From: Beroe forskalii
Lineage: Eukaryota; Ctenophora; Nuda; Beroida; Beroidae
DNA: 64,000 bases
Direction of reading: 5' to 3'
Assembly: GCA_011033025.1 (NCBI GenBank)
Contig: WFMF01000092.1
Span: 434,001-498,000 of the forward strand
Shown here one piece after another: positions 30,400 to 45,300 of the stretch. The notes under the pieces are model-generated. The model was not told where the DNA came from. It made no database searches and was given only the letters and a program-made list of their open reading frames with translations. Both the position numbers and the translations under genes were made by a program. Position 1 is the stretch's first letter. Each line of letters begins with the position of its first letter.

Positions 30400-33300
30400 C
30401 CTAAGAAGCAAGACGGAGACTACTTGAGAGCATTCTACGATATCATCCTCCCCCTGGCCATTGAGTACCAGCCTCAGATAACGTTCATAAGTGCAGGATT
30501 CGACTCGGGTCTCGGAGACCCACTGGTTAGTTAGAATTGTAATCGAATTTTATTCTTTCTTTAATCTCCAAAACGAGATCAACATAATATGTTGATATTC
30601 GACTGTGAGAATTGAATTACATTTTTCCGTTGGTTCTGCACACACCGTTTTGCAATATGCAAAAATATTATGCTATTTTTGTTTAATCTTTGATATCCTT
30701 CTTGTGAGTTACAAAATGATTTGTCTGACTAAAATTATGACATGTACATGATTATTTAAGTAGCTCTTTTCTTATCTGTGCTGTTGTCTGTAGGTTCCCT
30801 AAATTTTTGATTCTTTGTTTTCGCAGCATTGATATGATGCGGGGGGGGATCAGGTACTAAGTGCTTGACACAGGGTGTACTAACCGAGTTTTTCTGAAAA
30901 TTTTGAATCATGACCACCCACCCCAACACTTAGTACATTATACTAACTGCATTTGACCATGAAAAAAATGGGACCACCCCTTAATTGCATTAAATCAGTA
31001 TCTGAGACTCAATCTTTTTGGAAGAAATAAAATAAAGCAACTTATTGCACTATAAAATTCCATTGCTTGTGTATTCTCCATCATAAAAATATCAAAATCT
31101 GTTTTAAAACCTAAAAATGCAATTTCCATTGCAAAAATGTCCATTTTCAAAAAATATGTTTGAAAATAGATACCTGCATGAAATAAAAACCTTTCGAAAA
31201 TAATACCTACTGCTAGTCTGTGATTGATGATATATGAAAATATTAAAAAGTCTTAAAAACTAGTCACATCAGTGTATCATGAATAGATACATTATCATAT
31301 TAATAGTATAAAATTTAATCTATGATAATATTGCATAATTGGCATTAAAGATTCAGGAAGATGTCAAAAACTTTTTCTCATTTTCCTCAATGAGTAAGGT
31401 TGAACTAATTTCAACGTCAGGATGTAAATTCTCATAGTGATGTGGGATGTTATATTTCCAAACATCAGCCTGACATACATGACACTTCACTACATGATTA
31501 GTACACCGATTTCTAGTAGAGTAAGTTGTTGGCGATTTACCCCATTTGACAAAGTATGGGCAGTTACTTTGTAATTTGAAAAAGACCTTAGTGCCCCTCT
31601 TAGAACTCTTGTTGAGACTGAATGAACATGTTGTCTCCCCACAAAATCCGCAACTGTTAGTTAAGTCCTGTTTCAGGATATGGACGCCTACATGCTGTCT
31701 CATATGTTCTAGTTTCACCTTGAGTGGACACAGTTTACATGCTATTTTAGCTCCATGTGATAGATCAGATGAGGCTTCTGAAAGAGTAAGCCCCATGTCC
31801 ATGATGTAGCTCTTGTCAAAAGTAAACACTGTGCTACCCTCTGGTGGATTCAAGTTCAATTCTGGTTTTATTGGTGCAACTTCAGAACCTAGCACCTTCT
31901 CCACTGAGCCTTTGTGTTTACTATTCCAATTTAGCTTACCAGGAACAAGTTCGACGAGATCCAGTTCTTGAATAGTGAGCAAAAGAGTTGGACAATGTTG
32001 CTGATTTACATTGTAACTTTTAGCTGCTTTTCCTGCAATAATTATACCTCGTATTGCTGCAACAAAACACCTGTTCTGCTTCTTCATCAAAACCGAATCC
32101 CCAATCCTGATATCCTCTTCAATTTGATCAGCATCAGAGGATGTAGTACCTGCTGTTTTTAAATTGTGAATATAATGTAACAATGGACTCAATATAATGC
32201 TAATATGATGCCATGATTAACCAAATTATTTAGTTTTTAACCATATATATTCTGGCCCAGTCTCTAATAACTTTGACTTTGAGTTTTTGACTTTCATATT
32301 TGAGATAAATCAGGCATTCAATTAATAGTTACCATCGTTTCTAGTCATTCCCCTTATCCGTTTGAGTCGATCTTTAGATAGGGATTCACTTGAAAACATC
32401 TCCTTGATGATAGTTGCTTTGTAAACAACAGTATCATCAATATTGATTGTGTTTGAGGCAAGCAACTGCTCCCTAAGATCACTGCTCTCGTCTTCCTGGG
32501 ATTTTCTCATTAGAATCAAATGTGACATGGGTAAATTATGATAATAGGTAAAGCTATTTAAAGCTATATGTAAACATATAACCACCCTAACTACTGCTCC
32601 ATTCATTGCTCAAAATTGAAATATGTGAAAGATGTGTAGTTTATCATTGATTCTACATCTGGAATAGAACATACTTGTATGTCATGATTCACGCCATCAC
32701 TCGATTCATTGCTCAAGGAGTAAACTCGGTCCTCATTCAAGCCTATCAGCTTCCCCTTTGGTTTCTTGAGCGTTGTGAGATGACCATCACATGTTTCTTG
32801 AACTTCCTGTCCTAGATGCTTTAGAACATCAGCAAGTCCCTGCAATCTGCCAGTGTTCCAATGAAGAGAAACATCTTCATCTCCTATTGTGAGTTTATCA
32901 GCATTCCAAGATGCTGGGTTGGACTTATCAAGTGATATCCTTCCTGAAACTCTACTTGATTGTGACCATTCTGGATGGTCAACAGTGAGAATTTTGTCAC
33001 ACTGTTCTATTGAAGAAAATGCATTAATCAATGATGCTGAATCATCGCTTTGGTTGGCTAAAACCATCCTACCTCGACCAAAAGTTCTTTCTAGTGGGTC
33101 AGTCCCATTTTGGACCATATATAAAGGTTCTGTTGGGAAGAAAACTGCCGCTTTTGCTGAGCAAAAAATGGCATCTATAAATGTACTCTGTATATCGTGG
33201 TACAGCTGATTGTTTATACATGAAGTATTATGCTGATACATCCCCAAAAGTATGTATGCTGCTCGGGAAAATGTGCTGATCTGCTTCATAATAGTGGTGT

Positions 33301-36300
33301 CCCTGTAGACATAGAAGTGTAACAAGCCTTCCATCACCAATGCATACAGTTTAAGCTCTGAAATGGCCTTTTGCAGACGAAATGGAATTTTGCTATAGTT
33401 ACCCTCATCTAGCATTACTTCAATGAATGTGAGAAAGAATTTTGAAGCTGCAGGCACATTCTGTTTGTCTCTAGGGTATACTAACCTCTCAAGGGAAAGA
33501 GGCTCCAAACCTGATAAACCTAAAAGGTCAATGAGGTCTCTTCTTACAATAGGAACTCCAGCCAGCTGCACCGACTCGTTAGTAAAGCTTTGCCATAATC
33601 TTTTAACTAGATGCTTAGGATCAAAGCTGACGGTCTCCTGCCCTTTGCCACACAACTGGTCAACCATGGGAAGCTTGGATATGATCTTACCAACATCAGT
33701 TGTCAAATCTAGTTGATGAGAAAGAAGACTTGCCAAAGAAATCCTGCGAATACCATCTCCATCTGTGCAATAGTTCATCACATTCTTTCCAGTATGAAGA
33801 TGAACAAACTTCCTTACCGATTCGAATATATCATTGGTTCCATGAAAATCATCTTTACTGCAAGTAGGCCAAGAAATGGCTACTTTCACAACATCTGTGG
33901 TATTGAGCTTATTCAACCCAACAACAAGACTATCCTTAGGGACATGTATAACTCCCTCTTTCACTGCACTCTGAATTAGCTGTGCTTCTTCAAAACTGTC
34001 AAATTTTAAAAGCTCTTTATGTTCTTTTCCATGTTTGTAACAAACTCCCTGCAATGAGTCTGAAGGTTCATCGAATTTCAACCTTGGAGAAACATAGGTC
34101 TCATCAACCTTCACGGACACTGCATAAGAGTTGATGAAATCCACAGGAACATTACTATTCAAGCAGTCAGTGACAGACCAAGTAATTGGTGAGCGAAATG
34201 GTTTCATTGTTCTTGCCAGTCTATATGCAGTTGATGATGATGGTAAAAGATTCGCTTTATAGCAAATATCAAGAAGGCGGGGACCACCAATTTTGAGGAC
34301 CACAACAGCCAGGTCCTTGTCCTCTTGTGAGGGTCTCGCACGATAAATGCCATCTATGGCATCTTTAACTTTTTCCACAATATAGTTCAGGCTTCTATGA
34401 CCCTTCAAAGCCACAGTCAGTAGTTCTTTCAGTCTTGGAACATTGTTACTTGCCATTAAAGATACAAGTCTTTCATGAAGACTTAAACATTTACCAAGTC
34501 TAGCTATCTTCCTTTGACAATTCAACTCTTCCAACTTAAGCTTATTTTTGAACGTTTCATGGGCTTGTATTCGTCCACTTAACTGAGTAAAATTCAAATA
34601 TTTACAACCATGGAACGTTAAATCAGCAGCCATGCTCGAAGCCCTCGTTATTATTTCATTTAAAGCTTTATTATAACGAAGGTTATCACAGCATTTGTTT
34701 ACTGGATTAACATCATGAACATATTCATCTCGTATGATAAAGTTACTATTAAAGCAAGTCTCATGGTGTATTTTGTCATGATTTATTCTTATATGTGACC
34801 ATTTCGCAGAAACATCGTCGAGAAGTTGAAATGGAAATGTTTTGTGAATTGATTGGACATTCCACGTTAAACCACTACAGTATTTCTCATGCGCTTCTGT
34901 AGCAATGTCATGAAAAGAAGACGTTGTTCCTTCAGTAGAGCCTAAATTCGTGCTTTCACCAGGTGGCATTACATCATGCTGAACATGTTGAGTTACAGAG
35001 CTGTCATTAGTTGTTAGACAAGTTACATTCTGAGACTCAGCATAACCAGAACTATCATTAGTTGTTAGTACATTCTGAGACTCAGCATTACCAGAGCTGT
35101 CATTAGTTGTTAGTACATTCTGAGACTCAGCATTACCAGAGCTGTCATTAGTTGTTAGTACATTCTGAGACTCAGCATTACCAGAGCTGTCATTAGTTGT
35201 TAGTACATTCTGAGACTCGGCATAACCAGAACTATCATTAGTTGTTAGTACATTCTGAGACTCGGCATTACCAGAGCTATCATTAGTTGTTAGTACATTC
35301 TGAGACTCAGCATTACCAGAGCTGTCATTAGTTGTTAGTACATTCTGAGACTCAGCATTACCAGAGCTATCATTAGTTGTTAGTACATTCTGAGACTCAG
35401 CATTACCAGAGCTGTCATTAGTTGTTAGTACATTCTGAGACTCAGCATAACCAGAACTATTTGATTCATCATTGGCTGGCCGTGGTCTCTGAAAAGAAGA
35501 TGATTGGCAAATGGGGACTTACATTATGCTGTATGTAACTTGTACACATACTACATTTATACATAAACATGTAAGTATAGGTGTATAATTGATAGTGTAT
35601 ATGGTGTATACAATATACACCATATTACATAGTATTTAAATGCGTTATTTCATGGGTTCAGTGCGTGAACATCACATTGGAATTACCATGTCACAAGATT
35701 AGCATGTATCTATGCTATGTATGACTAAACCTCTATTAACTGACCCACAAATTCAAAAGTTAAGTATCAATTTATTTTTTCACTTTTATTGATTTCCTGA
35801 CAAAGCAAATGTGACAACCCTTCCCCCCCCCCTTTACTTCCTCAGTGAAGTGGTACCTGCCGTGGGTCAAAACAACTTAATAATTACGGAATATGTGACT
35901 TTGATAAGCATTTACCTTTGTCAAAAACTGGGTTATAAGCGTGTTATTGTTCCTACATGTGCTCCTTTGCAGTTGTTTGCAGGAACGGAGGTGCTTTGTT
36001 AGGTTATACTCATTCTTGCAATCACGTTTGCAATGAGAACACTGAAAGCTGTTAGACATACAAACCTGTATAATGTATATAGTATCAACTAAGTTTAATG
36101 CGTTTAAAAGAATTAATCATGATTTAACAACGCTATTAGGTGGCTTATTAAGGTCGCCATTGACTTAACACAATCAACGAAAGGAGGTGTCATGAATTAC
36201 TTTGGACGATAGAAACTGTTGAAAATGCAATGAGGGGAATGAAACGAGTAACGACATAGTTATACCTTTAAACTATAAAAAGTGATGTATAAGCATATAC

Positions 36301-39300
36301 CATATTTCAACATTGAGCAGCAAAAATGCAATGTTTAAAATTTCTAACTTAAAGTTAAGTTCGAATAATTCAAATAACGCATATATTCTATTTTCAATGT
36401 GATATGGACCTAACTAAGTATATAATCAATAATATATATCAGCAGCCCAAATCCTGATTCCTTACTTTGTCGAAGTCTCGGGCTTCGGCTCGTTGCACCT
36501 ATAACAGTTTACCCTATGAGCGAAATTGTTGCAATCGCAGCAAGAGCAACGCCAGTCACCATCTTTAACCAAGAGAGATTCGCCCTGATCTTTTGGCTTT
36601 CTGCAATTGGTACATCTCAGAATGCTTAGACGAGACATTCGTGTGCCACATGAACACTTCCAAGCCTTAGATGAGCGTTGTACTTTCGGCATTCTATTAT
36701 TGCAATATTACGGGATAACAATTTTGAAAACGTATATCTGTCATTTAAATATAAAATAACTTCTACCTCATTAACTAATTATTTAATTAGGCAATAAATA
36801 ATCAAACCTGGTTAGAAAATATTAAGTCTCAATGACCAATGGACTACAGACAGATTACTAATTTTGCAATATGGTATGCTATACCCTTTGGCAGTTATAG
36901 ATGATACCAATCACAGAATTTTACGTTTTTAAAAGGGAGATTGGGAGTTCCAATGGATGAAGATTGCTGTACGATAACAACAAGAAGAGTAATTAAGGTA
37001 TACGTTGTCATACCGAACGAAGCAAATGAACGATACAAAGCAAACAAGCAACTAGAAGACTATTGAAAGGCGGACGTAATTCGAGGTTCCAGAAAAAATA
37101 ACTTAATGATTCCATGTTAATTCAATAATTGGTAATTCGTACAATGATTCAAGATGGAGTTGTAAACAGGGAGACACGTGAATTTTGAATGCCTACAATC
37201 CCTGAAAATTAATAGAAACAAATCCTCTTACACCGCTTACACACAATATCAATGTATGGTGAAAGCAATACCGGATCACTTCATTGGCATTATCTAATAA
37301 AGCAATTAGTGCTTCAATGTGATTAGAGTTTTCTGCACCCATGTGTAAAGCTCAATCAAATTTGCTTGAGTGGAACAGTACCACAAATTCCGTGAACACA
37401 AATTCAATTCCGAGATAATCAAGTCAGGGTTCGCTCTGCACCTTCTGGTAATAATGTTGCAATCAATGTATAGGCCTCTTGTTGTGATATAATTAAAACT
37501 TCACTGATTTGAAATTAAAGAAATTAAAAACTTCTAGCCTAAATTTTTGAAATTTGTGTATAAATACTATTGAAACTGAAATTCTTTTAACATGAAACGT
37601 CTGGCTTCTGGGGCTGCTTGGGCCCCCACTTTAGATTGTGAACATTTGATACTCATTTGAAGTACTCTATTGGAATTCTATTACAGTATTACACTGGACA
37701 TGTACCAATACATATTGTAATAGTGATAATTTATATGCAAAGAAAAGTTAGAAATGGCTCTTCTATGATTTTTCGGTTAATAGTAGCATATTTAGATACC
37801 AAAGCACAAGCAGAAATTGCTGTTGAGTCTGACAGACTATACCTCCATATTTGTTCTCATAGGTCCAGAAAGCCACTAGCTAGAACCTCTGTTCTTTAGA
37901 CTTTTAGACAAAAACTTCATTTTCAAGCATTGAACTCGGCTAAATACTTCCAAATCTAAATTTGGAAATTCGTGAACCTTTTCGGAAGAAATTTTAGACG
38001 AGCCATGAAAATTTTTATAAACCAACTGAAAATATCACAAAATTTTGATACAACTACAGTCTACAGTCAACTACAGTCTACAGAGAAGGTTTCTGTATAG
38101 AAAGTTTCAAGTAAATTCATGCTGGATAGTATGGTATGCTGAATTAAGAAACCGATTAAGAACTTTTTAGGCTCAAAATCGTCAAAAATAAGAAACTTGT
38201 AGCCTGAAGTTTAATAAGTTTCTTATAAAAAAAAAACTAGTGTAATGTGTAACTACTCTTATATGAGATGAGGGGCCGCTGCAGGCTCCGTAATAATGTT
38301 TCAAATACTAAAAATAAGGTACGTATACTAAGTGCTACTTGAAAAATTTCATAGACCTATCATTTAGTACACATTCTCGTACTAAGTGATACTTTGGGAA
38401 ATTCTCAAGGATCACTCCAATTTTAGTACAATGATGACTAACTGTATTTCACACTCGGCCGGGACCCACCCACCCACAACCCTGTGTCATACTTAGTACC
38501 TGATCCCCTGTATGATGATGTTTTCCCCAAATCACTTTAGAATCATGTCCTTGAGCTTGATAAAACAGAGGTTCCCGGAATAACCAGTGTCACTACGAAG
38601 TCCCACTGAAATACGGTAACCTACCTACCAACTCCTTCTGGCCCTGCGAGAATAACGTTTATCCCGTGAACGAGGGCCCGTCATTGAAACTTACAACCCA
38701 ACGATACCTCTTCTCCATTCGTTTTTAACGGAACAGGAGTTTAAACTCAATCTTCGTCCACATCGAGATGAAAGCAAGTAGGAGAATTTGCTGATTTCTC
38801 AAGTAATATTCGACAATCTCGTCAGCAAGAACAAAACAAAAACGTTGTGGTCTAGGCTTCTCTGAGTTCGGGGCTTGAGTGGATTTAGGGCTGCAACAGG
38901 GGAGCTTTGGTGGTTTTGATGCTGACTTCTCTGCGGGTTGCCTGGCATTAAATATTTAAATGCGTTATTTCATGGGTTCAGTGTAGACATCACATTGGAA
39001 ATTACCATGTCACAAAGATTAGCATGTATCTATGCTATGTATGATTAAACCTGTATTAACTGACCCACAAATTCAAAAGTTAAGTATCAATTTATTTTTT
39101 CACTTTTATTGATTTTCCTGACAAAGCAAATGTGACAACCCTTCCCCCTTTGCTTCCTCAGTGAAGTGGTACCTGCCGTGGGTCAAAACAACTTAATAAT
39201 TACGGAATATGTGACTTTGATAAGCATTTACCTTTGTCAAAAACTGGGTTATAAGCGTATTATTGTTCCTACATGTGCTCCTTTGCAGTTGTTTGCGGAA

Positions 39301-42300
39301 CGGAGGTGCTTTGTTAGGTTATACTCATTCTTGCAATCACGTCGGCAATGAGAACACTGAAAGCTGTTGAACATACAAACCCGTATAATGTATATAGTAT
39401 CAACTAAGTTTAATGCGTTTAAAGAATTAATCATGATTTAACAACGCTATTGGTGGCTTATTAGGTCGCCATTGACTTAACACAATCAACGAAAGGAGGT
39501 GTCATGAATTACTTTGGACGATAGAAACTGTTGAAAATGCAATGAGGGAATGAAACGAAGTAACGACATAGTTATACCTTTAAACTATAAAAAAGTGATG
39601 TATAAGCATATACCATATTTCAACATTGAGCAGCAAAATGCAATATTTAAAATTTCTAACTTAAAGTTAAGTTCGAATAATTCAAATAACGCATATATTC
39701 TTTTCAATGGATATGGACCTAACTAAATATATAATCAATAATATATATCAACGCCCAAATCCTGATTCCTTACTTTGTCGAAGTCTCGGGCTTCGGCTCG
39801 TTGCACCTATAACAGTTTACCCCTATGAGCGAAATTGTTGCAATCGCAGCAAGAGCAACGCCAGTCACCATCTTTTAACCAGAGAGATTCGCCCTGATCT
39901 TTTGGCTTTCTGCAATTGGTACATCTCAGAATGCTTAGACAGAGACATTCGTGTGCCACATATGAACACTTCAAGCCTTAGATGAGCGTTGTACTTTCGG
40001 CATTCTATTATTTGCAATATTGCAGGATAACAATTTTGAAAACGTATATCTGTCATTTAAATATAAAATAACTACCTCATTAACTAATTATTTAATTAGG
40101 CAATAAATAATCAAACCTGGTTAGAAAATATTAAGTCTCAATGACCAATGGACTACAGACAGATTACTAATTTTGCAATATGGTATACTATACCTTTGGC
40201 AAGTTATAGATGATACAATCACAGAATTTTACGTTTTAAAGGGAGATGGGGAGTTCAATGGATGAAGATTGCTGTACGATAACAACAAGAAGAGTAATTA
40301 AGGTATACGTTGTCATACCGAACGAAGCAAATGAACGATACAAAGCAAACAAGCAACCAGAAGACTTATTGAAAGACGGACGTAATTCGAGGTTCAGAAA
40401 AAACAACTTAATGATTCCATGTTAATTCAATAATTGTATTCGTACAATGATTCAAGATGGGTTATAAAACAGGGGAGACGTGAATTTTTGAATGCCTACA
40501 ATCCCTGAAAATTAATAGAAACAAATCCTCTTACACCGCTTACACACAATATCAATGTATGGTGAAAAGCAATACCGGATCACTTCATTGGCATTATCTA
40601 ATAAAGCAATTAGTGCTTCAATGTGATTAGAGTTTTCTGCACCCATGTGTAAGCTCAATCAAATTTGCTTGAGTGGAACAGTACCACAAATTCCGTGAAC
40701 ACAAATTCAATTCCGAGATAATCAAGTCAGGGTTCGCTCTGCACCTTCTGGTAATAATGTTGCAATCAATGTATAGGCCTCTTGTTGTGATATACACTCA
40801 GTTTCTTTTATAAGAAACTGTCTATAAGAAACTTAGCCCAGGATTCTCAAAAATTTAAGAAACTTAGCCTAGAATTTCGGAAAAATTAAGAAACTTCACT
40901 GATTTGAAATTAAGAAATTAAGAAACTTCTAGCCTAGAATTTTGAAATTTGTGTATAAAATACTATTGAAACTGAAATTCTTTTAACATGAAACGTCTGG
41001 CTTCTGGGGGCTGCGCCCCCAGACCCCCACTTTTAGATTGTGAACATTTTGATACTCATTTGAAGTACTCCTATTGGAATTCTATTACAGTATTACACTG
41101 GACATGTGTAATACATGTGTAATAGTGATAATTTATATGCAAAAGAAAGAAAATGGCTCTTCTATGATTTTCGGTTAATAGTAGCATGTTAGATACCAAA
41201 GCACAAGCAGAAATTGCTGTTGGTCTGACGACTATACCTCATATTTGTTCTCATAGGTCCAGAAAGCCACTAGCTAGAACCTCTGTTCTTTAGACTTTTA
41301 GACAAAAACTTCATTTTCAAGCATTGAACTCGGCTAAATACTTCCAAATCTAAATTTGGAAATTCGTGAACCTTTTCGGAAGAAATTTTTAGACGAGCCA
41401 TGAAGATTTTTTATAAACCAGCTGAAAATATCTAAAAAATTTTGATACAACTACAGTCACAGTCAACTACAGTCTACAGAGAAGGTTTCTGTATAGAAAG
41501 TTTCACAAATGAAATTCATGCTGGATAGTATGGTATGCTGAATTGAAACCGATTAAGAAACTTTTGGCTCAAAATCGTCAAAAAGAAAATTTCAAGGACC
41601 ACCCAACTTAGTACACGATGACTAACTGTATTTCACACTCGGCCGGGACCCACCCACCCACACCCTGTGTCATGCACTTAGTACCTGATCCCCCCCCGTA
41701 TGATGATGTTTTCCCAAATCACTTTAGAATCATGTCCCTTGAGCTTGATAAAACAGAGGTTCCCGGAATAACCAGTGTCCACTACAGAAGTCCCACTGAA
41801 ATACGCGGTAACTTACCGTACCAACTCCTTCTGGCCCTGTGCGAGAATAACCGGTTTGATCCAGTGAACGAGAGGCCTGTCATTGAAGCTTACATCAACT
41901 CCAACGATACCTACTTCTCTACCATCTACGTTTTTAACGGAACAGGAGAATTAATCTCAATCTTCGTCCACATCGAGATGAAAGCAAGTAAGGAGGAAGT
42001 TGCTGAATTTCTCAAAGTAATATTCCGACCAGATCTCGTCAGCAAGAACAAAACAAGAAACGTTGTGGTCCTGGGCTTCCAGTCTGAGTTCCGGGAGTCC
42101 TTGGTGAGTGGATTTAGGGCTGCAACAGAGGGGAGCTTTGGTGGTTTTGATGCCTACGACTTCTGGCTGCCTCCAGAGAGATTGGTCACTGAGACATCTC
42201 TTCCCACTGAGTACAGGTGCAGGAATTTGGAGAAGCAACACGCTCCCCACATAGCTATCAAATGGGATGAAGATGTGGGCAATGCGGTGTCGTATCAGGG

Positions 42301-45300
42301 AGGAGCTGAGGACATTGTGTTGAGAAACATCCTATTCCGACCTAGTGCTGGGGTCTTCTATAAAGAGGAAGAAACTCCCATAGCCTGGATACTGACATAC
42401 AATCACGGTCAGTCCGGTATGCTTCATGTTGCACAGGGTCACCGGGGACAAGGCTTTGCTCAGCATCTGGTCAAGTTCATATATGATGAGATGAAGAAAA
42501 GCTATGGAACAGGATCCTATATTTCTATACATTCGGACAACGATGTGTCTTCTGCACTTTTCTCTAAATTAGGATGGATGAAACAAGACAAACCGTGTAT
42601 TATGTTCGTTCAAAAGACAATTAGTAGTGTCTAATGTCCTGTGTGAATTGTTATTAATAAATTACGTGTTTCAGTATAACCGATGTGTCTTTATTTTGAC
42701 AGCTCATTCGTCATGTTTTTAGTCTCCGTCTACATTTCTATCGCTATCAAATATTCATTTATCGTTATCTGTCAGATTTCTTCAGAAAAAAATCACGTTA
42801 TATTAAGTAAGTAAATAGCAGACAGCTACAGGTACGCATATGCGTGCAGACCGCTCGATTGACAGAGGCCTCGATAAAGACGCGCGGATTTCCTTTGCGC
42901 GCTTCAACTTTCTATATGAATTCCGTCAAAAGCACACAATTTCGCGCGTCTTAATCGAGACCTTTTAATCGAGCGGTCTGCACACATAATATGGGTTACC
43001 TTTTCCTCGATCCAACTGTCCCCTCCCACAGCGTCTCGTGGCCTGTTTAAATACTCACTTCATTCCAGGGTAATTGCTGCGTCACCTCAGAGGGGTACGG
43101 AATGATGACGCACCATCTCATGTGTGTCTCCAGGGGCAAGGTTATAGTTGCTCTTGAAGTGAGTCATTGCATGATGTTCGTTCTTATTCGTCATTCGAAC
43201 TTTATTGTTATTGACATTCGATAAAATAGTAGAAGTGCGTGTGACCTTTCCTGTTCTAGCCACTGTTTTATCACACATGGTACCATCAATGATCGATCCG
43301 GGCAGGAGTTGTGACCGAAGTCGAGGCTTCGGTCGACCCTCGAATCAAGTCTGAATTCCTTTTTGACGAAGGCCCAATCCTCGGTAAATACGGAGGCTGA
43401 GAACTCATTCGATCACTGGGTACCCTAGATATCTCTCAACACCTAACCACCATAAACCTGCAGGGAGGGTACAACCTCAGTACAGTTTCCAGAGGCATCA
43501 AAGCGTGTACCAGTGTTTTATTGGGGGACCAACCTGAGCCTGTGGAACCTGAAGAGAGCATTCCTTCCGAGGGGTGGGTTTATCATGAGTGTTCTAGTTC
43601 AGAACAGTAGTTATTTCCAATTATGTTGATCAAAGTGGTGGTATTGCCGCTGTTTGGTGAAAGATTACTTTAGCCAACCCACCGTGGGTTTTCAAACAAA
43701 CAAACAGCATTTTGCATAATATCGCAGTCTTATCCGTTGTTCTTATAATTTTGTCTGTTATTTTTTCAACAAAATAACAGATCCCATTTTTCAGCGCGCT
43801 TGAGAGCATAGCTACAACCGCTAAACACCTCTCTCACTTCTGGAAATCTCTGGCAAGATTCAGTAAGTCAGGACCGTCGTTATGATCATTAGCCAGTTTC
43901 TTTGATTTCGGTCGGTTTTTTGGAATTTTTTTGAAAATTCAAATTCGAAACCTCAAAATCCCCACTATATATTTTTCTTTCTATTTTTCTACAATTCCGA
44001 ATTCCAATGAATATACTGCATAATATAGTGCTCAAGGTCAACACATATCAACATGCTCCAGCGTACCCAAAACATCTAGATTATGTAGTTTCAGTTATGC
44101 AGTTCGTTTTTCTCTATATCACAGTACCACCTGTCTAAACTTCTAAACTCGTCTAATTACTTTTTATACTCTGTGCTGTGTCAAATTCAGCATAGCACAC
44201 GTGTATTTAGTTTACTTATGTCACCTTATGTAAGTTATATTATTCAGAGGGTTAAAGATCGGCTTATAATCGGTGCTAAATTTGTCAGTCTTCATTATGC
44301 ACAGTGTTATATACTGCGATTATTGAGCCAGGTGCCAATGTGGCCGTATTACAGAGTGTAATGCGTACTGCAGTCTGCAACGTGGTTTGCTACATAATAG
44401 TAAAAAGAACGTTCTAGGTCATTTGGCCTAACGGGACATTTGGCTTAACGTCGAGATTCTCTACATCATCTATAATATTCGTGATGTTGAGTAATCGTGA
44501 TACAAATTGACAGGTTATTATTTTCAGGAGAACCCACAGCTCCTGAAAGAACGGATGCTAGCACTCGACATCATGTGTAAGCTATGAATTAGTGAGAATT
44601 GTTTAAACAATAAAGTTCAACAAGTTGTTATATACTATATTAAATATTCTACATTCAGGAAATTCCTATCTCATTGTATCACATCAATAAAAAACATAAT
44701 AATATCCCCAGGAGCAGAAGAAGCAGATCACCAACTCACTCCACAACATCATCTCCCACCCCTGTAAAACCTGCACCTGCATCATCTCCCACACCATCTC
44801 CCACACCATCTCCCAAACCACGTGCATCATCTTCCACTGTCAAACCAACACGTGCTTGGTACTCACGGCTATCGGCAGGGAGTGACATCTCACTGAATGG
44901 CATTTCACAGGATGCCACCACATTCCAGGGCATATCACAGGATGCTGCCACATTTCAGGGCGATATCTCACGAAATAATGACACTTCACAGAATGAAAAT
45001 TCTCAGAATGGCATGTCTTGCGACTCACACGGTGACTCGTCGTTCATTGTGCCCTCCAGCTTAGTGGCCAAGTCATCCACTGCACATGGTCCTGTGAACA
45101 GTAGAGATGCTCTTGAAAATATCAATCAGGGAAATGCTTTATTCAACCAGACGTACCTTGTGAATTCACCTCAGAAAAACATTCCACCAAGATCACCTAG
45201 AGCATCACTAAGATCACCAAGAACATCACCGAGATCACCTAGAACATCACCAAGGTCACCTAGAACATCACCGAGATCACCTAGAAAGTCCCAATCATCA

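What the first reader, a model, noticed from the sequence alone, without database searches (positions are those of the whole stretch)
30840..41698. Intact, hard-to-classify DNA transposon with a 1378-aa multi-finger transposase
The ends (39-bp inverted repeats, one mismatch), the 7-bp TATGATG duplication and a five-exon gene whose exon lengths sum exactly to a whole number of codons were all found independently and agree. The protein joins RanBP2-type fingers, a C2H2 finger, a 15-aa repeat linker, an acidic-residue core and a C-terminal Cys/His region. I know no described superfamily with this architecture. A 7-bp duplication is uncommon, and the eight-G terminus is unusual. It may be a new superfamily or a divergent P/THAP9-like or Dada-like group.
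Basis: partly seen in the sequence, partly recalled or inferred. Interest (0 to 1): 0.93.

Follow-up and report, generated by a model that had tools for sequence, protein, structure and literature searches.

The report
A THAP-less relative of P elements
This is a real, repeatedly inserted DNA transposon whose transposase has the predicted fold of the fruit-fly P element's enzyme but lacks that enzyme's usual DNA-binding domain, so it widens a known group instead of founding a new one, and its true size is probably about 7.7 kb because part of the sequence appears to be duplicated by an assembly error.

Summary
The element is real. Its 39-bp inverted repeats (one mismatch), TATGATG duplication and five-exon, 1378-aa gene check out. 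An exact flanking duplication of 7-8 bp is found in 22 of 27 copies, against 1 of 702 mismatched pairings. Four families with 40-56% identical cores keep the exon order as far as exons are found; three of the four share the CGGGGGGGG...TCA end.

New: no THAP domain found; RanBP2-type and C2H2 fingers instead; a conserved C-terminal zinc region; poly-G ends; relatives in mushrooms. I call it a THAP-less, P-like lineage, not a new superfamily.

The parts
30833..30839 (.). Left copy of the 7-bp target-site duplication, TATGATG
   Evidence: Read directly
30840..30878 (+). Left terminal inverted repeat, 39 bp, 5'-CGGGGGGGGATCAGGTACTAAGTG...
30840..31040 (.). Left 200 bp with ACTAA[GC]-type motifs, proposed transposase-binding repeats (4 in 200 bp; 20 in the 10.46-kb interior)
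   Evidence: role inferred
31353..32152 (-). Exon 5: C-terminal region, possible SH3-like beta barrel followed by a conserved Cys/His zinc region
32333..32495 (-). Exon 4
32675..35488 (-). Exon 3: repeat linker, long helix, helical region, RNase H-like core with helical insertion; candidate catalytic D582, D696, E920, D(2)H motif D743/H746, and D917
35024..35460 (-). Approximate extent of the 45-bp tandem repeats encoding the 15-aa linker repeats
   Evidence: family D1
35916..36048 (-). Exon 2: C2H2/C2HC-type finger; a similar finger stands near the N terminus of many relatives
36466..36692 (-). Exon 1: start codon and RanBP2-type finger region (two fingers by eye, one by Pfam below cut-off)
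37492..38243 (.). About 0.7-kb stretch absent from sister copies L009 and L038, probably a nested insertion
35633..38922 (.). First copy of the 3.3-kb near-duplication (inner); few differences from copy L038 over its first 1.8 kb, 88% at its right end; carries exons 1-2, an inner right end (38491-38508) and a corrupted piece of host flank
38953..42153 (.). Second copy of the near-duplication (outer); many differences from L038 over its first 1.6 kb, identical over its last 114 bp of element; exon 1 frame is broken here
41660..41698 (-). Right terminal inverted repeat, 39 bp; the last 114 bp (41585-41698) are identical in copies L009 and L038
41699..41705 (.). Right copy of the 7-bp target-site duplication, TATGATG

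Best explanation
It is an autonomous cut-and-paste DNA transposon of about 7.7 kb belonging to a THAP-less, P-like lineage. SHOWN: repeated insertion with conserved inverted repeats and 7-bp duplications; a five-exon transposase gene whose exon order is conserved in diverged families as far as exons were found; a predicted RNase H core that matches P transposase, with conserved D, D, D(2)H, E. INFERRED: the N-terminal zinc fingers take the place of THAP and bind the terminal and subterminal ACTAAGTG-type repeats; the long helix dimerises the enzyme; two ends are paired and cut by the DDE site, with the insertion possibly using GTP as in P; the freed ends attack a 7-bp staggered target; short internally deleted copies are moved in trans. 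The C-terminal region may contact chromatin or DNA. The extra 3.3 kb in the window is most likely an assembly duplication.
Against: No sequence-level P match passes a curated cut-off: PF21787 touches 2 of 21 members of A1 (0.0014 and 0.04; 19.4 and 14.6 bits against 24.6), none of 7 further relatives and not the window protein; neither phmmer nor a 21-member profile finds 6p5a. THAP was not found, although it was reported in all P proteins known in 2006 (PMC1562414, passage); several relatives are incomplete at the N terminus, so for them this is a weak test. D1-D2 spacing is 114 here and 73 in P. Most of P's GTP contacts could not be mapped. 5 of 27 copies lack an exact 7-bp duplication (one of them has 6 bp). 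No expression or activity data. A genuine tandem duplication followed by decay is not strictly excluded.
Confidence: 0.82

Rival explanations
1. A separate, new superfamily that shares only the general hAT/P/MuDR/Kolobok RNase H layout with a helical insertion; the likeness to P is deep and not diagnostic.
For: No THAP found, no sequence match to P families above cut-off, distinctive termini and accessory domains; the D(2)H (or C(2)H) motif is shared by hAT, Kolobok, P and MuDR (PMC3706591).
Confidence: 0.13
2. A Dada-superfamily element.
For: Dada makes 6-7 bp duplications, has a large multi-exon transposase (1402 aa in Dada-U6_DR), zinc motifs at both ends of the protein, a D(2)H motif, and occurs in animals and in Laccaria (PMC3706591).
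Against: Dada-U6 and Dada-U1 are described without terminal inverted repeats, whereas 39-bp repeats are present here. Dada families are often found at specific sites in small RNA genes, whereas the duplications here differ from copy to copy. D-D-E spacing in Dada-U6_DR is 68/176 (from D567, D635, E811); here it is 114/224.
Confidence: 0.04
3. The 3.3-kb repeat is a true tandem duplication in the genome, so the element really spans 10.9 kb.
For: Both copies are in the assembly; a rearrangement at a transposon end is conceivable.
Against: The two copies are complementary in quality. Over the 1.8 kb compared with L038 in 200-bp bins, the inner copy has 0-7 differences per bin (22 in all) and the outer copy 6-19 in eight bins and 2 in the last (101 in all). 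At the right end this reverses: the inner copy is 88% and the outer 100% identical to L038. The inner host flank is 87% identical to the outer one, with scattered indels inside a coding sequence. L009 and L038 have no such duplication. This is what two unmerged overlapping contig ends would look like.
Confidence: 0.1

Closest known systems
Drosophila P element transposase and THAP9 (P superfamily)
   Different: No THAP domain found; RanBP2-type and C2H2 fingers in its place; extra C-terminal Cys/His region; poly-G terminus; mostly 7-bp, not 8-bp duplication; D1-D2 spacing 114 against 73
Galileo (P superfamily, Drosophila)
   Same: Mostly 7-bp target-site duplications (PMC4168063, passages read); P-superfamily transposase
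   Different: Galileo has long, internally repetitive inverted repeats with binding sites for a THAP domain (PMC3573991 and PMC3688188, search listing only)
Dada superfamily
   Same: 6-7 bp duplications, large multi-exon transposase, zinc motifs at both ends, D(2)H motif, found in animals and fungi (PMC3706591, passages and one section read)
   Different: No terminal inverted repeats in Dada-U6 and Dada-U1, insertion often at specific small-RNA sites, different D-D-E spacing
Uncharacterised mushroom proteins (Panaeolus, Crassisporium, Antrodiella, Polyporus, Mycena, Exidia)
   Same: Homologous core (five at 22-25% identity, E 1.7e-35 to 2.6e-7; the Exidia protein P0027 by profile); the same D, D, D(2)H, E residues except where P0021 has gaps; in P0017, P0018 and P0020 a similar C-terminal CxxCG...WKYN zinc region
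   Different: Named only as hypothetical proteins; their elements' ends were not available; N-terminal domains differ (P0027 has a weak BED-finger match, below cut-off)

Membership tests
P superfamily (transposase core) | RNase H-like core interrupted by a helical insertion, closest to solved P transposase | tested here: met
P superfamily (transposase core) | Signature D, D, [C/D](2)H, E (PMC8230255, passages read) | tested here: met
   D582, D696, D743-x2-H746, E920; expected residue in 33, 33, 32 and 32 of 35 aligned sequences, the rest gaps except one Q at the first D in a fragment
P superfamily (transposase core) | Significant sequence similarity to P/THAP9 models | tested here: inconclusive
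   PF21787 in 2 of 21 members, best E 0.0014, below the curated cut-off, spanning both catalytic D residues of P0005; no hit for the window protein or for 7 further relatives
P superfamily (transposase core) | GTP-binding insertion with the listed GTP contacts | tested here: inconclusive
   D917 matches D528 by spacing to the catalytic E; the other contacts listed in PMC7776569 could not be placed without a residue-level structural alignment; GTP binding not testable
[quoted passage not shown]
   No THAP hit in the 1378-aa protein at E<=10, in its N-terminal 111 aa at E<=10, among the 21 members of A1 at E<=1 or in 7 more relatives at E<=1; member 1 of A1 and several relatives lack a complete N terminus. 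Hence filed as P-like, not as P/THAP9 proper
P superfamily (element) | Target-site duplication of 7-8 bp | tested here: met
   Exact match of 7 bp (17) or 8 bp (5) in 22 of 27 copies, null 1 of 702
Dada | No terminal inverted repeats, short subterminal ones (reported for Dada-U6 and Dada-U1) | tested here: not met
   39-bp terminal inverted repeats here; Dada description from PMC3706591
Dada | Insertion at specific sites in multicopy small RNA genes | tested here: not met
   Duplications differ among the copies that have one; the flanks were not searched for RNA genes
Dada | Sequence similarity to Dada transposases | not tested
   No Dada sequence was available in the collections used
hAT / Transib-RAG / Tn5-type | Best fold match to that family | tested here: inconclusive

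The most novel reading that the evidence does not exclude
A THAP-less sister branch of the P superfamily, with members in this genome and in mushrooms, in which other zinc fingers do the end recognition and a conserved C-terminal Tudor/chromo-like barrel plus zinc region reads chromatin or DNA. If so, THAP was added to a P-type enzyme only in the P/THAP9 branch, and the GTP-using mechanism is older and wider than THAP (THAP is described as restricted to animals, PMC7776569).
Probability: 0.35. Interest if true: 0.72.

Novelty: new variant of a known kind. Interest (0 to 1): 0.52.

Why it matters
P is mechanistically unusual: it uses GTP as a cofactor, and the P proteins known in 2006 all carried THAP. 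A P-type enzyme with the DNA-binding module swapped would let one ask which parts of that mechanism are essential and when THAP joined the transposase. It also gives a probable identity to uncharacterised proteins in mushrooms and to unnamed database entries. The practical lesson is that an 'intact 10.9-kb element' can be an ordinary element inflated by a probable assembly fault.

Tried and rejected

How the 27 copies were chosen: 20 pairs of ends fetched, taken from the capped listings where both ends were visible, plus the window and six copies. Rows dropped before that count: L021 (two places) and L022; by eye both L021 places show ATCTAAT and L022 shows none. The rule allowed the border to shift by up to 3 bases on either side, for real and mismatched pairs alike. 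Of the five copies without an exact 7-bp duplication, C142 and C157 look 6 of 7 by eye, and C499, C500 and C325 show none.

Literature: whether this lineage is in Repbase could not be checked. The listings of ten searches of the open library (two of them empty) showed no paper describing a THAP-less P lineage or P elements in mushrooms, but I saw titles and abstract beginnings only, and most subscription papers are not held (Yuan and Wessler 2011 was not held).

Full report
WHAT IS THERE. The window lies in an unnamed 216-Mb assembly of 1134 contigs. Arms 30840-30878 and 41660-41698 are 39-bp inverted repeats with one mismatch, flanked by TATGATG on both sides. Five exons on the minus strand with GT-AG introns give 4137 nt, 1378 aa and one stop. 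Exons 1-2 are read from the 36.5-kb copy; in the second copy at 39.8 kb the frame of exon 1 is broken.

IT MOVES. The left 361 bp matched 42 places in the genome and the right 113 bp 42 places, both lower bounds because only 40 candidates were scored. The terminal pattern CGGGGGGGATCANGNACTAAGTG with up to 3 mismatches occurs 321 times (157 forward, 164 reverse) against 3 for the reversed control. I compared the flanks of 27 copies with both ends in hand: 17 have an exact duplication of 7 bp, 5 of 8 bp (in four of these the eighth base is the element's own terminal C or G), 1 of 6 bp, 4 none; pairing left and right flanks of different copies gave 7 bp or more in 1 of 702. The duplications differ in sequence, so there is no single target. 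Many copies are non-autonomous, for example L017, L018 and L020 at about 1.47-1.49 kb.

RELATED FAMILIES. The core has relatives elsewhere in the same genome: 11 matching stretches on C1047 (the element itself), C914, C311, C499, C185 and C1002. BLASTP gives 53% (C914), 40% (C311), 51-52% (C499) and 55-56% (C185) identity to the window's core. C914, C311 and C499 carry a CGGGGGGGG...TCA terminus 1.7-1.9 kb beyond the 3' side of the core; in C185 no such end was found. The exons recur in order: core and exon 4 in 4 of 4 families, exon 5 in 3 of 4, exon 2 in 3 of 4 (weak), exon 1 in 2 of 4. The RanBP2-type exon is therefore part of the gene and not an accident of one copy.

LENGTH CORRECTION. 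35633-38922 and 38953-42153 are near-copies (96%, then 92%, then 87% identical along their length). They include an inner right end at 38491-38508 and a second, corrupted copy of the host flank, with indels inside the acetyltransferase coding sequence. Over 1.8 kb compared with copy L038 the inner copy has 22 differences and the outer 101; at the right end the inner copy is 88% and the outer 100% identical to L038. L009 and L038 have no duplication. Two overlapping, unpolished contig ends laid end to end would look like this. The element is then about 7.67 kb, of which about 0.7 kb (37492-38243) is absent from L009 and L038. I had no reads, so this is an inference.

SIGNATURE. The P signature is D230, D303, a [C/D](2)H motif and E531 (PMC8230255, passages read). 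Here D582, D696, D743-x2-H746 and E920 fit it. In an alignment of 35 sequences (28 proteins, the window, and six pieces of four loci) the expected residue stands in 33, 33, 32 and 32; the others are gaps, except one Q at the first D, at the edge of a C185 fragment. D2-E spacing is 224 here and 228 in P; D1-D2 spacing is 114 here and 73 in P. D917 precedes E920 by three, as D528 precedes E531; D528 is among the GTP contacts listed for P (PMC7776569, passages read). Pfam's TNP-like RNase H model PF21787 aligns to P0005 residues 454-586 (E 0.0014), a stretch spanning its D466 and D578, and weakly to P0007 (435-483, E 0.04, around its first D only); both are below the curated cut-off, and 19 of 21 members show nothing.

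HOW IT LIKELY WORKS. By analogy with P: zinc fingers bind the ends, where ACTAA[GC] motifs are denser (4 and 3 in the outer 200 bp, 20 in the 10.46-kb interior); a long helix (core 104-151) dimerises; the DDE site cuts and rejoins; the target is cut with a 7-bp stagger. GTP use is a prediction. The element's first base is C, so its 3'-terminal base is G, as in the GTP contact described for P. Three near-identical copies, one of them partial, lie on one 515-kb contig, and no similarity was seen outside the element; this would fit local hopping. L009 is an internally deleted copy with both ends and a GCAACAT duplication.

PLACE AMONG KNOWN KINDS. I place it as a THAP-less, P-like lineage. I do not file it as P/THAP9 proper because THAP was tested and not met. 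The 7-bp duplication matches Galileo (PMC4168063, passages read). Dada is disfavoured by ends, targets and spacing (PMC3706591, passages and one section read). The listings of ten searches of an open library that lacks most subscription papers showed no description of this lineage; Repbase itself could not be searched.

Noticed in passing
window 41732-42634 (+): A 300-aa acetyltransferase ORF (FR47 E 9.4e-11) starts about 33 bp after the right end, so the element sits just upstream of a probable host gene's start codon. No homolog was found in the protein database at E<=0.001.
   Followed up: partly
window 38509-38952: A corrupted second copy of the host flank (87% identical, many indels), which looks like unpolished read-end sequence at a contig join.
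   Followed up: yes
G000:C1047:253958-256000, 361584-366096, 464840-475698 (L038, L009, window): Three near-identical copies (L038 partial, L009 internally deleted) on one 515-kb contig of a 216-Mb genome, alike only within the element: possible local hopping.
   Followed up: partly
L009 junction (window 32705|35709) and L038 position 2499 (window 35715): The internal deletion of L009 and the breakpoint of L038 fall within about 6 bp of each other; at the L038 break a run of ten G begins, and no more of the element is seen beyond it in the fetched piece.
   Followed up: partly
window 37492-38243 and 40795-41587: A stretch absent from L009 and L038, containing repeats such as TAAGAAACTT; probably a nested insertion, its ends not defined.
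   Followed up: no
G000:C295:179142-179339; also C1013, C407, C525, C550, C189, C225: Further copies of the RanBP2-type exon at 37-59% identity, perhaps marking more families of this lineage.
   Followed up: no
P0001 and L034 (C914): A transposase from an unnamed database contig is 98.1% identical over 821 aa to the C914 copy, so the same or a very close host was sampled elsewhere.
   Followed up: no
BFVD O92526: An uncharacterised bracovirus protein is the only viral structure matching the core at E<=0.001 (3.2e-4).
   Followed up: no
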